Translations under genes and position numbers: made by a program | NCBI GenBank assembly: GCA_024227975.1 | Contig: JAAETV010000113.1 | Location: 1 to 27,311 of the forward strand | Direction: 5' to 3' | Length of the DNA: 27,311 bases | Source of the DNA: Actinomycetes bacterium | Lineage (GTDB): Bacteria > Actinomycetota > Acidimicrobiia > Acidimicrobiales > SZUA-35 | Notes under the pieces: generated by a model | Seen by the model: the letters and a program-made list of their open reading frames with translations, nothing else | What the model was told of the DNA's origin: nothing | The model's database searches: none | Part shown: piece by piece, positions 14,588 to 23,424 of the stretch | Layout: the number at the start of each line of letters is the position of its first letter | Position numbering within the stretch: position 1 is the stretch's first letter

Positions 14588-15710
14588 TCATGACTTGTCG
14601 TGCTCACTGGGTGGGTTGTCGTTCTTGAGCTTGTTGTGTCGACTGCAGAGGATTTGGCCGTTGGTGGTGTTGGTCGGTCCGTCCCGATTCCAGGCGATGA
14701 GGTGGTCGGCTTCAAGCCAGGTGAGCGGTGCATCGGAGAAGATCAGTCGCCGGAACCGGGCGGTAGCCATGGCCGCGGCCGCCAAGTGGGGGTGGACGGG
14801 GATGCCATTGATGAACTCACAGCGCCCATCGATGTCGTCGGGGTCGAGAGGTACTCGGTCGGCGCCGGGCCAAGGCCCGGGGCCTTCGGCTCGGGGGACG
14901 GATGTCAGGAGGTGTTCGGCCACGGTCTCACTCATGACGATGTGGATCAACGCCCCGGAGAGGTTCGAGTCGGGATTGGCGGCTCCATTGCGAACGAGGA
15001 TCACGAACGCATCGGCTCGGCGTTGGCTGGCGGCGCGGGTGGACCCGGTTTCTTGGTCCTCACGCCACAGCTGTCGGACGAGACGGTCCATAGCAGAAGT
15101 GAAGGCGTGGCCAGCCAACGGGTCGAGACGGAACCGACCAGAGACGGATCCGTCGGCGTTGGTCGAATAGTCCACCGAGCGTTTGGTGGCTTGGTCCCTG
15201 GGTTCGTCACCGTCTGGATCCGCGGCCTGAGCCCAGTACCGCAAGACCCGTTGGAACTCATCCCACTGACAGCCGGCGGCCGCCTGGACCAGGTATTCCT
15301 GGGCCTCGACCAGGGCTGTGGAGGTGCGAGGGTTCTCGACTGCTCTCAGGGCTTCGACGTGAGCTTGGCTGATCAGGCCAGCGGTGAATGCATCCCCGAT
15401 GACGGGGAACCCGAGGAGCCACAGACCCCGTCGTCGGTCGGCTCGGGTGATGCGGGGGGTTGGTCGTAGCGTTGGTCGCTACGGCAGCAGCGGTTGACGA
15501 GTGGCCATGTTCGCCGGTGGGGAGCATGGCCAAATCAACCCTGGCCAACAACAGTGCATTCAACGCCCCGACCTGAGCCGCCAATGATTGGACCTCGACC
15601 GTCACCGCCAACACCTCATCGGAGGACAACGTCGAGAGTCCAGCAGCGGCCACCACACCAGCTGAACAACCGCTTCGGATCTGAGCCAACGCTTCGGTCA
15701 TCGGGTGCAC
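14588..15710 (-). pseudogene. DUF222/13E12-type HNH endonuclease gene with a frameshift
   Basis: Two minus-strand frames join into one DUF222-HNH protein of about 373 aa. Residues 1-85 (GTG at 15710; GAGGTG 7 nt upstream) carry the DUF222 N-terminus up to TGEHGHSSTAAAVATN. The next frame continues with ITRADRRRGLWLLGFPVIG, then GDAFTAGLISQAHVEAL, and ends in an HNH nuclease motif (EADHLIAWNRDG...NGQILCSRHN). The break falls at a run of six C (plus-strand G 15454-15459); one base fewer there restores a continuous frame. It is either a recent natural frameshift or a sequencing error in a homopolymer. Family members are actinobacterial, multicopy and often LexA-controlled; this one sits behind an SOS-box promoter. 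Intact, it would be a putative DNA endonuclease of unknown target. The Cys pair of a zinc-finger HNH is absent. Confidence 0.8.
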
Positions 15711-15763
15711 GCTCGAGCCACCTCAAACAGCAACGCAGACCACGATCGGCCACCACACGAGAC

Positions 15764-15796
15764 CCCGCCTGGCTGGTGTCACACCAGCCAGGCGGG
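15764..15796. repeat. Perfect 16-bp inverted repeat with a 1-nt centre
   Basis: CCCGCCTGGCTGGTGT (15764-15779) and its exact reverse complement (15781-15796) flank a single C. As RNA it would give a stem of about 14 bp with a 5-nt loop. It lies in the putative leader of the HNH gene, downstream of the SOS promoter (minus strand) and about 54 nt before the GTG. There is no T-tract on either side. It could be an attenuator or terminator, a second operator, or a remnant of a small palindromic element. Confidence 0.8.
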
Positions 15797-15858
15797 ATCA
15801 GATCAGGTTGAACGGCAGCTACCGCTGCGAGCGCCGCCCCAAGAGGCAACGTCCCATC

Positions 15859-15887
15859 ACTCTATCGAACAGTTGTTCGAGTAGCAA
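15859..15887 (-). promoter_or_regulatory. LexA (SOS) box inside a sigma-70-type promoter of the HNH gene
   Basis: TCGAAC-AGTT-GTTCGA (15865-15880) is an exact match to the actinobacterial SOS box TCGAAC-N4-GTTCGA. On the minus strand it fills the spacer between a -35-like TTGCTA (15887-15882) and a -10 TAGAGT (15864-15859), exactly 17 bp apart. LexA bound here would block RNA polymerase until DNA damage. Transcription would start near 15852 and give a roughly 140-nt leader to the HNH start at 15710. Several M. tuberculosis 13E12-family genes are known LexA targets, so box and gene agree. Confidence 0.8.
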
Positions 15888-16013: not shown

Positions 16014-16265
16014 ATGTCCGGGATTCTGCTGCTCCTGCTCTACCTGGTGATGATCGTCTTCATCGTCAGAGCCATCATCAGTTGGTTTCCAATCGGCTTC
16101 GACTCCCCGTTCCGGCCAGTCGTGGACACCCTTTACCGGATCACCGACCCGGTCCTGGCCCCGATACGACGGGTTCTGCCTCCCATGGGGGGCCTCGACC
16201 TCTCAGTGCTCATCGTGATCATCGTGATCCGGTTCGTGCTGATACCGATTGCCAGCAACCTCTGA
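16014..16265 (+). CDS. YggT-family membrane protein
   Basis: An 83-aa protein with two hydrophobic helices (about residues 3-24 and 62-80) joined by a conserved loop: SWFPIGFDSPFRPVVDTLYRITDPVLAPIRRVLPP carries the YggT pattern (P-hx-x-ltdP-hL-P-hR). YggT proteins sit in the cytoplasmic membrane; in actinobacteria they are usually encoded near ftsZ/sepF, which are absent here, and their role is poorly defined (osmotic or division related). GGAG lies only 2 nt before the ATG, so either initiation is unusual or the transcript starts close to the ATG. It is convergent with the AceE-like gene, 29 nt apart. Confidence 0.85.
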   Translation: MSGILLLLLYLVMIVFIVRAIISWFPIGFDSPFRPVVDTLYRITDPVLAPIRRVLPPMGGLDLSVLIVIIVIRFVLIPIASNL

Positions 16266-19908: not shown

Positions 19909-22900
19909 TTGCGTTTCTCGCTGCTCGGGCCACTCGAGGTTCTCACGGGCGACACACAACTGGAGGTCGCAGGCAGGAAGCAACAGCTGATCTTGACCGC
20001 GCTCATTCTGGCCCGAGCCAATGTGGTCTCGGCTGACCGTTTGATCACCCTGATCTGGGGTGACCAGCTCCCGACGAAACCCTCGCAGACCCTCCGCTCG
20101 TATGTCTCCCATCTACGTCGGACTCTCGACCCCGAGCGCCAAGCAGGTGCCCGATCTGGTCTCCTGGTCACGAAGTCGCCTGGATATCTCCTCGACACCG
20201 CTTCTGCCAATGTCGATGTCTTTGACTTCGAGAATCGCTCGACGAGGGCCGATCGCTACCTGGCGGTTGGGCGTTTCGAGGCCACTTTTGCCGAGACAAA
20301 GGGCGCCATTGACCTCTGGCGATCCGACGACCTGGTCGACAGTCCACTCGTGCACTTCTCCGGCGAGCGGGAACGGCTGGTTGAGCTACGCCTCCACACG
20401 GTCGGAGTCGGCTTCGATGCCATGCTCGGAGCTGGACGCCACCGTGAAGCAATACCCGACTTGAGGCGACTAGTCGAGCGTGAGCCATTGAGGGAACACC
20501 CTCGATCTCAGCTGATGTTGGCCCTCCATCGGTCCGGTCGTTCGGCCGAGGCCGTTGACGTCTACCACGCCGGCCATCGGATATTGATCGAGGAGACCGG
20601 GTTCGACCCATCGACCCTTCTGCGTGAGCTCGAGGCCAGGATCTTGGCCAATGATCCAGATCTCGATTGGCGCGGGCCCGAGCCCCTTGGTGACACCAAC
20701 CGTGATCGGTCTATTGCATCGATCGAGACTGCGCCCTCCGCATGGTCGGTGGGGCGCGAGAAGGAGGTAGCCCTCATCGTCGACGCCATCTCGCCTCCGG
20801 TCGGCGAGTTGGTGGTGATGACCGGAGAGCCTGGTATCGGCAAGACCCGTCTGGCCGAGCTTGCTGCTGGTCAAGCCGGTGAACGGGGGATGCTCAGTGC
20901 CTGGGGTCATTGTTACCAGGGGGCAAGGTCAGCGACTTTGGCTCCATGGAGAGCCGCCCTGGCAATGATGACGGAGCATCTCGATGACCATTGCCTACAC
21001 GATCTCGGCTACCTTCGGGCCGCCCAGCTGGGTCAGCTGGTGCCGGAGTTGGCCGCCCGAGTCGGGGTCGAACCGATCGAGACAGGTGATCCACAGGCCC
21101 TCCAAGAGGCCATCGTTCAGTTCATCCGCCATCTCATCAAGGAACAGCCTCTACTCCTTTGCTTCGAAGACCTACATTGGGCTGACCCGGCCTCGGTATG
21201 GCTCCTCGTGCATCTCCTTCCTCAGGTGCGAGGGCTCCCCTTTGCCACTGTCGCCACCTGGAGAGATACCGATCCGACCTCAGACGAGCTGCAAACGGCC
21301 CTCGTCGAGTTGGCCAAGCAAGGCCCCGACCACCGTCTCCGTCTCACCGGCTTCGACGTGGATGCCGTGGCCGACCTCTGGGCCGGGATCAGGGGTCAAC
21401 CGGGTTCACCGAGTGCAGTGGCAGAGCTTCAGGCCCGAACCGAGGGTAATCCCCTCTTCGTTACCGAGCTCCTACGTCCGCCGATCGGGGCGCCGCCAGA
21501 GATGTCGCCCGCTCCGTCAGCCCAACTCTCAGGAGCGGTATCAACCACCACCATCAATGATGTGATCGAAGCTCGTCTGGCCCAGCTGCCCGAGGGATGC
21601 GATGAGTTGTTGACGATCTGTGCCCTGAGCCCAGATAGTGCAACCCCAGAGCTTCTCAGTCAGGTTCTGGGCCAGGACGGTGATCATGTCATCGACCAGA
21701 TTGACTCGCTGCTGGCCGCTGGCCTCATTGTCGACATGTCTCCACCGGCTCCAACGTTGAAAGTGCGTCATTCCGTCATCGCCGACAATCTGACCGGACG
21801 CCTCTCCGAAGCTCGCAAGGCTCAGCTCCACACCCAGATTGCCGAGTCCCTCCGCCAGCTCAAAGCGCCGGCTGGCCCTCTGGCTCATCACTTCCTCAGC
21901 GGCCTCGCCCAGGATCCGAAGGTGGTAGCCCAGGCCGCCCTCGATGCCGCTGTCGATAGCTCGGCTCTTCACGATCACCTCGGTGCAATTGATCTGGTGG
22001 AGCGAGGACTCAGCGCACTCAAACGAGATGATGACGATCTGCTGCGGGCTCGACTCATGATCGTCCTGGCTGTGGAGCACAAGCACCAGGAGCATTTCAA
22101 CCAGGCGCATTCCGCTGCCCTGGAAGGGTTTGCCCTGGCGCGCCGACAAGGTGATCTGGATCTGATGGTGGCGGCGACCATGGTGTTCTGTGGGTTCAGG
22201 GCCGCTGACGTTCACTATGGGGTGGAGTGGCTCGGCTACTGGAACCCACCGGGGCCCGCTCTCGAGATCCTGGATGTCTGCCTGGACGAGTTGGGTCCCT
22301 GTCACCAAAGGGTCTTCTGCCTTGTGGCCCGAGCGGATCAGTTCATTGGTGACTATTTCGATGAGGACGACCTGTTCGCAACCCTGGACGAGGCGGTGGC
22401 CCTCGCTCGCAAACTCGATGATCCCGTCCTGCTCTCGACAACCCTCCGCCACGACCTTCTGGCCCGTGAACGGTATCTGTCGGTTGCTGAGCGCCGAGAG
22501 CTGCTAGACGAAGGGCTGGCTGCGGTTGGCTCTGAGATGCACCCCCAGCGAGAACTGGTCGGCAACCGGGATGCGTTCGTCCTGTGCCTCGATGAGGAGG
22601 ACCTCGACGCAGCGGTGGCCCACGTTGATGGAGCCATCACCTGTACTCGTGGCACCGATGATCCGACGCTCGAGATGTTGGCCGAGTCGATGTCGATCGC
22701 TCTCGACCTCTACCAGGGCAACTTCGATGAAGTCGAAGCAGCGCTACATGGCACCATGGCCCGATTCGGAGGAGTGGGCAATGCGGCCCTCGATCTGTTC
22801 GGGATCCAACTGGCTGTACTCCAGCGCGAGCGCGGAGAGCTGGCAGAGGTGGAATCATTGCTCCAATGGAAGCTCTCTGGCTACCCGAGCGGGGCCTATG

Positions 22901-23424
22901 GGATACCACTTGCCCTCGTGATGGCTGAACAGGGCAACGAGGAAGGTGCCCGTGTCGTACTGGACGAGTTCGGCTCCACGAGCTCGACAATGAGGTCCGA
23001 GACCGTCGTCCAGTTCATGACTCCGGCCTTCGCAACCGAGTTGGCTGTGACCCTCGACGATCGAGAAATGGCAGCTATGTTGTATCCGGCCATGGCCATG
23101 GCCGCGGGTCGGACGGTGGCGATGTTCAGTGGCATCGCGATGTTCGGTAGTGGCTCGTACTATCTCGGTCGGCTGGCCACCATGCTCGGGTTGTACGACG
23201 ATGCCCATGCCCATCTCCTGCTGGCCGAAAGGCAGCACCGCTCAGCAGCCGCCAAGCCCTATCTCTTGCGGGGTGAACTGGCCAGAGCCGAACTGGCAGG
23301 CCTCGTGGACCGAGACAGAGCTGGGCTCGAGCATCTGGAGCGAGCAGAGCGACTAGGAGCCGAGCTTGGCATGGATTGGTTTGTGGCTGCCCACCGGCTT
23401 CGCGTTGCGACCAGCCGCCGATAG
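19909..23424 (+). CDS. BTAD-AAA ATPase transcriptional regulator (AfsR/SARP-like, 1171 aa)
   Basis: A large signal-transducing regulator. Residues 1-95 form an OmpR/SARP winged-helix domain (RFSLLGPLEV...SYVSHLRRTLDP...GYLLD). Residues 100-250 are the BTAD domain, ending in the typical LIEETGFDPSTLLRELEARIL. An AAA/STAND ATPase follows with Walker A GEPGIGKT (306-313) and Walker B LLLCFEDLHWAD (415-426), then a long alpha-solenoid/TPR-like region (about 650-1165). There is no C-terminal LuxR HTH. It should bind DNA as an ATP-gated activator. The start is TTG at 19909, directly before RFSLLGPLEV; GGGG lies about 8 nt upstream. It sits 84 nt after cobT. No biosynthetic gene cluster lies next to it, so its targets are unknown. 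Confidence 0.85.
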   Translation: MRFSLLGPLEVLTGDTQLEVAGRKQQLILTALILARANVVSADRLITLIWGDQLPTKPSQTLRSYVSHLRRTLDPERQAGARSGLLVTKSPGYLLDTASANVDVFDFENRSTRADRYLAVGRFEATFAETKGAIDLWRSDDLVDSPLVHFSGERERLVELRLHTVGVGFDAMLGAGRHREAIPDLRRLVEREPLREHPRSQLMLALHRSGRSAEAVDVYHAGHRILIEETGFDPSTLLRELEARILANDPDLDWRGPEPLGDTNRDRSIASIETAPSAWSVGREKEVALIVDAISPPVGELVVMTGEPGIGKTRLAELAAGQAGERGMLSAWGHCYQGARSATLAPWRAALAMMTEHLDDHCLHDLGYLRAAQLGQLVPELAARVGVEPIETGDPQALQEAIVQFIRHLIKEQPLLLCFEDLHWADPASVWLLVHLLPQVRGLPFATVATWRDTDPTSDELQTALVELAKQGPDHRLRLTGFDVDAVADLWAGIRGQPGSPSAVAELQARTEGNPLFVTELLRPPIGAPPEMSPAPSAQLSGAVSTTTINDVIEARLAQLPEGCDELLTICALSPDSATPELLSQVLGQDGDHVIDQIDSLLAAGLIVDMSPPAPTLKVRHSVIADNLTGRLSEARKAQLHTQIAESLRQLKAPAGPLAHHFLSGLAQDPKVVAQAALDAAVDSSALHDHLGAIDLVERGLSALKRDDDDLLRARLMIVLAVEHKHQEHFNQAHSAALEGFALARRQGDLDLMVAATMVFCGFRAADVHYGVEWLGYWNPPGPALEILDVCLDELGPCHQRVFCLVARADQFIGDYFDEDDLFATLDEAVALARKLDDPVLLSTTLRHDLLARERYLSVAERRELLDEGLAAVGSEMHPQRELVGNRDAFVLCLDEEDLDAAVAHVDGAITCTRGTDDPTLEMLAESMSIALDLYQGNFDEVEAALHGTMARFGGVGNAALDLFGIQLAVLQRERGELAEVESLLQWKLSGYPSGAYGIPLALVMAEQGNEEGARVVLDEFGSTSSTMRSETVVQFMTPAFATELAVTLDDREMAAMLYPAMAMAAGRTVAMFSGIAMFGSGSYYLGRLATMLGLYDDAHAHLLLAERQHRSAAAKPYLLRGELARAELAGLVDRDRAGLEHLERAERLGAELGMDWFVAAHRLRVATSRR

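What the first reader, a model, noticed from the sequence alone, without database searches (positions are those of the whole stretch)
15859..15887. Perfect LexA box embedded in a 17-bp-spaced promoter ahead of a 13E12/DUF222 HNH gene
TCGAAC-AGTT-GTTCGA (15865-15880) matches the actinobacterial SOS box exactly and lies between TTGCTA and TAGAGT with 17-bp spacing, oriented toward the HNH gene. Some 13E12-family genes of M. tuberculosis are in the LexA regulon, so this suggests that SOS control of DUF222-HNH nucleases is kept outside mycobacteria. What the nuclease does during DNA damage is unknown.
Basis: partly seen in the sequence, partly recalled or inferred. Interest (0 to 1): 0.75.

Follow-up and report, generated by a model that had tools for sequence, protein, structure and literature searches.

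The report
SOS-controlled promoter before broken nuclease gene
A very likely DNA-damage switch (a LexA operator inside a promoter) sits in front of a DUF222-type nuclease gene that is broken in this genome, and many relatives of that gene in other Actinomycetota carry the same switch.

Summary
The box TCGAACAGTTGTTCGA (15865-15880) is real, unique in the window and expected 0.0018 times. On the minus strand it fills the 17-bp spacer between TTGCTA and TAGAGT. Relatives support it: all 9 exact boxes in 38 Acidimicrobiia DUF222 loci lie 32-123 bp ahead of the DUF222 start; in a phylum-wide sample 36 of 66 DUF222 genes have a box with at most one mismatch, against 0 of 66 for each of two controls. 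The same box also lies beside lexA, recA and imuA' genes, and 37 of 55 Acidimicrobiia DUF222 promoters share the window's layout. So the box is kept ahead of DUF222-HNH genes outside mycobacteria.

The promoter is most likely a survivor ahead of a relic. LexA control of 13E12 genes is already published for M. tuberculosis; the breadth is what is added here. Binding, induction and nuclease function are untested.

The parts
15865..15880 (.). LexA operator (SOS box) TCGAAC-N4-GTTCGA, perfect arms
   Evidence: same motif beside lexA, recA, DnaE-type polymerase and imuA' genes in Acidimicrobiia
15882..15887 (-). -35 hexamer TTGCTA
   Evidence: TTG at the same register in relatives
15859..15864 (-). 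-10 hexamer TAGAGT
   Evidence: TANNNT directly after the box in relatives
15852..15852 (-). predicted transcription start (approximate, inferred)
   Evidence: usual distance from a -10 hexamer; not measured
15761..15799 (-). strong palindrome in the predicted leader (19-nt arms, 95% complementary, 1 nt between)
   Evidence: exact core in none of 243 loci
15258..15701 (-). N-terminal frame of the broken DUF222 gene (from ATG 15701; similar to relatives only down to about 15456)
14588..15478 (-). C-terminal frame of the broken DUF222 gene, stop to stop; similar to relatives from about 15457 down
14734..14735 (-). place where 36 residues of relatives, including the HNH C-x4-C pair, are missing
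   Evidence: alignment to P0002
16014..16265 (+). divergent YggT-family gene, the other neighbour of the operator
   Evidence: PF02325, 65.7 bits

Best explanation
The site is a LexA operator inside the spacer of a housekeeping-type promoter that points at a DUF222-HNH (13E12-type) gene. A LexA dimer on it would keep RNA polymerase off both hexamers. After DNA damage, RecA filaments would make LexA cleave itself and the promoter would open, with transcription starting near 15852 on the minus strand. In relatives with the same layout the message is often leaderless and encodes a DUF222-HNH protein. In this genome the promoter is kept, but the gene is a recent relic that cannot give an intact HNH nuclease. 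Shown here: the box, the promoter layout and its conservation, the broken frame. Inferred: LexA binding, induction, relic status, and nuclease activity of the intact relatives.
For: Exact box, unique in the window. All 9 exact boxes in 279,450 bases of 38 DUF222-selected Acidimicrobiia loci lie 32-123 bp ahead of the estimated DUF222 start. Box with at most 1 mismatch ahead of 12 of 28, 6 of 24, 7 of 28 and 36 of 66 DUF222 genes in four samples (partly overlapping), against 0 in every sample for both controls, and 3 of 124 other ORFs of the loci L001-L038. After removal of identical proteins: 54 of 133 with at most 1 mismatch, 81 of 133 with at most 2. Exact boxes: 83 in 21 genomes against 8 for the reversed pattern; of 77 distinct sites examined 26 lie ahead of DUF222-like genes, others beside lexA, recA, DnaE-type and ImuA' genes. 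TTG and TANNNT around the box in 37 of 55 Acidimicrobiia promoters; start codon 6-7 nt after the -10 in 15 of 26 with the strict register (rows). Broken gene; elsewhere 135 of 144 locus-strands with room on both sides hold a full-length DUF222 gene (repeats not removed). The window's truncated protein is one sequence on 3 contigs, the window counted among them as far as I can tell, which makes a one-off assembly slip less likely.
Against: No binding or expression data. The host genome is not held, so its lexA and other boxes were not seen. Many DUF222 genes lack a box at 1 mismatch: 16 of 28, 18 of 24, 21 of 28, 30 of 66. The promoter layout is weak in the phylum sample: both elements in 7 of 46. 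The 55 promoters include loci fetched for holding the box and a few chance in-gene matches. The Streptomyces venezuelae LexA regulon paper does not mention HNH or DUF222 in its main text (PMC9380542). The frame change lies beside a run of one base, a usual place for sequencing error, so that defect could be technical, and the 3 contigs could be re-assemblies of one data set; the 36-residue loss is harder to explain so. The long leader with its hairpin is unlike the leaderless relatives.
Confidence: 0.82

Rival explanations
1. The box is a chance palindrome with no function.
For: The consensus promoter scan calls nothing here; the gene behind it is broken; boxes with 2 mismatches occur by chance.
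Against: Expectation 0.0018 for the exact box; 6.5e-8 for the box with TTG and TANNNT in register (that pattern was fixed after the window had been read, so the figure flatters). Same box in the same place ahead of many homologous genes with clean controls.
Confidence: 0.03
2. The operator serves the divergent YggT gene at 16014, and DUF222 is a bystander.
For: It lies in the shared intergenic stretch, 134 bp ahead of the YggT start.
Against: On the plus strand the positions of the hexamers read CAC and GTAGCA, not TTG and TANNNT; only the minus orientation fits the layout of relatives. YggT was not among the 25 families shown, of 42, for ORFs beside other boxes (the rest of the list was not shown).
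Confidence: 0.05
3. The gene is intact in the living cell and the two defects are sequencing or assembly faults, so this is an ordinary SOS-controlled DUF222-HNH gene.
For: A run of one base lies at the frame change; outside the two defects each piece is about 54-79% identical to relatives P0002-P0005 in its frame and free of stops.
Against: Two independent defects; the same protein on 3 contigs.
Confidence: 0.1

Closest known systems
LexA-regulated 13E12 (DUF222-HNH) genes of Mycobacterium tuberculosis, such as Rv0515, Rv1702c, Rv3074, Rv3776
   Same: Same SOS-box consensus TCGAAC-N4-GTTCGA (PMC4181829, section 27 read); 13E12 genes in the LexA regulon (PMC5005354, passages); Rv3074 and Rv3776 listed at about 29- and 22-fold with moxifloxacin (PMC7911356, passages). 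That REP13E12, HNH and DUF222 go together: PMC10589994, passages.
   Different: Here the hosts are Acidimicrobiia and an unnamed sample of the phylum; the window's copy is broken; in Acidimicrobiia the box fills the promoter spacer in a fixed register. No M. tuberculosis sequence was compared.
LexA-controlled imuA'-imuB-dnaE2 mutagenesis genes
   Same: Same operator in the same genomes; two imuA' sites (L197, L220) carry the window's 16 bases in the same sense.
   Different: They encode repair or mutagenesis proteins; the window's gene is a DUF222 relic.
Mycobacterium smegmatis HNH nuclease MSMEG_1275
   Same: An actinobacterial HNH nuclease linked with DNA damage; kills when overexpressed (PMC9416677, passages).
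   Different: Reported under an ArsR-type regulator; kinship with DUF222 was not tested here and the paper does not name DUF222 or 13E12.

Membership tests
Actinobacterial LexA/SOS operator | TCGAAC-N4-GTTCGA | tested here: met
   12 of 12 positions
Actinobacterial LexA/SOS operator | Same motif ahead of lexA and recA in related genomes | tested here: met
   2 ORFs with the LexA DNA-binding domain and 1 RecA among 77 ORFs beside exact boxes; the host's own genome is not held
Actinobacterial LexA/SOS operator | Bound by LexA, induced by damage | not testable with these tools
   needs gel shift and transcript mapping
DUF222 / 13E12 family (PF02720) | DUF222 domain | tested here: met
   56.5 bits against a cut-off of 24.4 in the C-terminal piece
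DUF222 / 13E12 family (PF02720) | C-terminal HNH domain (PF01844) intact | tested here: not met
   18.9 bits against 21.4; 36 residues with the C-x4-C pair missing
DUF222 / 13E12 family (PF02720) | One uninterrupted reading frame | tested here: not met
   frame changes near 15456
DUF222 / 13E12 family (PF02720) | Nuclease activity | not testable with these tools

The most novel reading that the evidence does not exclude
SOS control is the usual state of the DUF222-HNH family across the Actinomycetota. These often multi-copy genes (up to 18 matches in one genome) would be the largest single class of LexA targets in Acidimicrobiia, often read from leaderless messages, and act as damage-timed nucleases that either process RecA-bound DNA or kill cells damaged beyond repair.
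Probability: 0.4. Interest if true: 0.7.

Novelty: new member of a known kind. Interest (0 to 1): 0.5.

Why it matters
DUF222 genes are common and unexplained in Actinomycetota (57 of 149 sampled genomes). That 36 of 66 in a phylum sample carry a near-perfect SOS box makes an open question testable: what does a damage-induced DUF222-HNH protein do? It suggests that the M. tuberculosis observation is no mycobacterial peculiarity, and it gives a fixed operator-in-spacer promoter layout, at least in Acidimicrobiia, that can be scanned for.

Tried and rejected
Phage or plasmid origin: the DUF222 alignment found no relative in viral contigs; P0003 found one partial phage match (45% of the query) and two partial plasmid records (20-23%). 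I do not claim mobility.

Leader hairpin as a shared element: its exact core is in none of 243 loci held, nothing in the window reaches an Rfam gathering score, and in the leaders of boxed relatives listed the longest perfect arm is 6 bp against 15 in the window. Left unexplained.

Defence systems and known nucleases: PADLOC gave nothing for 3 of 4 proteins and a weak HNH match for P0025. NCBIfam gave only matches far below cut-off, to IscB, Cas9d and a phosphorothioate-DNA nuclease. Solved structures: two weak HNH-domain matches.

Limits of the counts: the four samples overlap (the second comes from the genomes of the first, the third repeats two of its genes), and repeats were removed only within a sample; one search counts distinct proteins. 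The phylum sample is 70 loci (30 best matches of 30 genomes plus 40 further listed copies), 66 scored and 67; it favours strong PF02720 matches and multi-copy genomes and can include Acidimicrobiia. By genome 22 of 38 have a gene with at most 1 mismatch, 29 of 38 with at most 2. Genes whose upstream part is cut by a contig end were dropped. Loci fetched for holding the box (L039-L057, L188-L243) were left out but are in the promoter profile. The 21 genomes were chosen because they hold DUF222 relatives, so the share of 26 of 77 is inflated for the class at large; 77 of 83 exact boxes were examined, some too near a contig end to assign. Estimated starts come from profile alignment, not from annotation.

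Literature: nine searches, of which I saw listings and passages, showed no paper on SOS boxes ahead of DUF222 genes outside mycobacteria. One search listed 15 papers for the term, which also matches names such as DUF2220; I looked into two of them. Davis 2002 and a comparative LexA paper that I recalled were not held, so an earlier description cannot be excluded.

Full report
What is in the window. The palindrome TCGAACAGTTGTTCGA is at 15865-15880. It is the only exact match and a first-order Markov model expects 0.0018. On the minus strand it is flanked by TTGCTA (15887-15882) and TAGAGT (15864-15859) at 17-bp spacing. The hexamers are weak by the general consensus and a plain scan misses them. 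The box lies between a divergent YggT gene (16014-16265, plus) and a DUF222 gene on the minus strand. The host genome is not held. The nearest proteins are from metagenome-assembled 'Actinomycetia'; the 38 loci with DNA all come from records titled Acidimicrobiia, Acidimicrobiales or Acidimicrobiaceae.

The gene is broken. Relatives P0002-P0005 align to the minus strand in two frames, the N-terminal part down to about 15456 in one, the rest from about 15457 in another. In addition, the alignment to P0002 shows 36 residues missing at 14734/14735. In the family alignment this stretch holds invariant and nearly invariant positions, among them a C-x4-C pair that by general knowledge of HNH domains binds zinc. 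PF02720 is well above its cut-off, PF01844 below it. Elsewhere 135 of 144 locus-strands with room on both sides hold a full-length DUF222 gene (repeats not removed), so this copy is in a minority. The broken protein is recorded as one sequence on 3 contigs. A sequencing fault at the frame change cannot be excluded, since a run of one base lies there.

Relatives show that the box goes with DUF222 genes. In the 279,450 bases of the 38 loci there are 9 exact boxes, all 32-123 bp ahead of the estimated DUF222 start. I scored the stretch -250 to +60 around the estimated start in four partly overlapping samples: Acidimicrobiia loci found by alignment, PF02720 matches in the same genomes, P0003-like genes in the class, PF02720 matches in the phylum. 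A box with at most one mismatch is there in 12 of 28, 6 of 24, 7 of 28 and 36 of 66 genes, and with at most two in 23 of 28, 9 of 24, 11 of 28 and 45 of 66. The reversed pattern in the same stretches gives 0 in all four at one mismatch and 0, 0, 1, 0 at two; the box pattern inside the genes gives 0 in all four at one and 1, 1, 2, 2 at two. Of 124 other ORFs in L001-L038, 3 have a box at one mismatch (Fisher p 4.9e-8 against 12 of 28). Among 133 distinct DUF222 proteins, 54 have a box at one mismatch and 81 at two; boxed genes lie in most parts of a quick tree (45 of its 130 inner branches unresolved), which needs at least 32 or 27 changes of state. Control by the box is therefore widespread in the family and often gained or lost.

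The motif is the LexA motif of these bacteria. In 21 genomes there are 83 exact boxes against 8 for the reversed pattern. Of 77 distinct sites examined, 26 lie ahead of DUF222-like genes; these genomes were chosen for holding DUF222 relatives, so this share is inflated. Among 77 ORFs beside the other sites, Pfam finds 2 with the LexA DNA-binding domain, 1 RecA, 3 PHP, 2 DNA polymerase III alpha and 1 IMS domain; the other families in the part of the list shown are mostly single, unrelated enzymes. NCBIfam names ImuA' for 3 of 10 ORFs scanned; two of these sites (L197, L220) carry the window's 16 bases in the same sense.

The promoter layout is shared in Acidimicrobiia. With 55 promoters aligned on boxes of at most two mismatches, TTG stands out at -7 to -5 and TANNNT begins directly after the box; 37 of 55 have both in a loose register, 5 the second alone, 13 neither. 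In 26 with the window's strict register, 15 have an in-frame ATG or GTG 6-7 nt after the -10 (my count from the rows; its own tally, on the first start codon within 3-9 nt, gives 13 of 26): the mark of leaderless messages. The window itself has no such start; its predicted leader is about 140-150 nt and holds a strong hairpin. In the phylum sample only 7 of 46 promoters have both elements, so the layout is not general.

How it would work. By standard knowledge of the SOS response, LexA on the operator would keep polymerase off, and RecA filaments formed after damage would make LexA cleave itself. Relatives with intact genes should then make a DUF222-HNH protein. What it does is not shown here. 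I rank first a nuclease acting on RecA-bound or damaged DNA: a passage in PMC7911356 notes that some HNH enzymes elsewhere cut DNA only when RecA is bound. Second is a self-destruct nuclease: MSMEG_1275 (PMC9416677, passages) shows that an actinobacterial HNH protein can kill, but its kinship with DUF222 was not tested. A part in mismatch repair has been proposed for the M. tuberculosis genes (PMC4181829, section 27).

What is known. LexA control of 13E12 genes, induction by damage and the same consensus are published for M. tuberculosis (PMC4181829, section 27 read; PMC5005354 and PMC7911356, passages); PMC8151990 (passage) reports five putative HNH endonucleases in a RecA-dependent set. None of nine searches showed the pattern described outside mycobacteria, but important papers are not held. 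The window's locus is a broken member of a known kind; the wider pattern extends that kind to Acidimicrobiia and, by an unnamed sample, to a good part of the phylum.

Noticed in passing
L026:1-1461 and L029:3634-5058: Two DUF222 genes from different genomes (96.5% identical DNA over 1352 bases) share the same break of reading frame, yet 33 of 38 counted coding differences are in third positions of the locally open frame, before and after the break. A programmed frame change, two separately made pieces, or a shared fault; the boxes ahead have 1 and 0 mismatches.
   Followed up: partly
window 15761-15799: Near-perfect palindrome with 19-nt arms between the SOS promoter and the DUF222 start; no T-run, no Rfam match, exact core in none of 243 loci.
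   Followed up: partly
L042, L201, L203, L205 (genome G008): Four exact boxes lie within about 50 bases of a contig end, as if near-identical promoter copies had stopped the assembly.
   Followed up: no
genome G019 (L031, L053, L230-L239): Twelve exact boxes but no PF02720 match, although the box in L237 precedes a DUF222-like ORF by the session's own profile: the Pfam model misses part of the family.
   Followed up: no
window 19909-23424: Large regulator of 1171 aa with BTAD and AAA_16 ATPase domains, among mostly metabolic genes.
   Followed up: no
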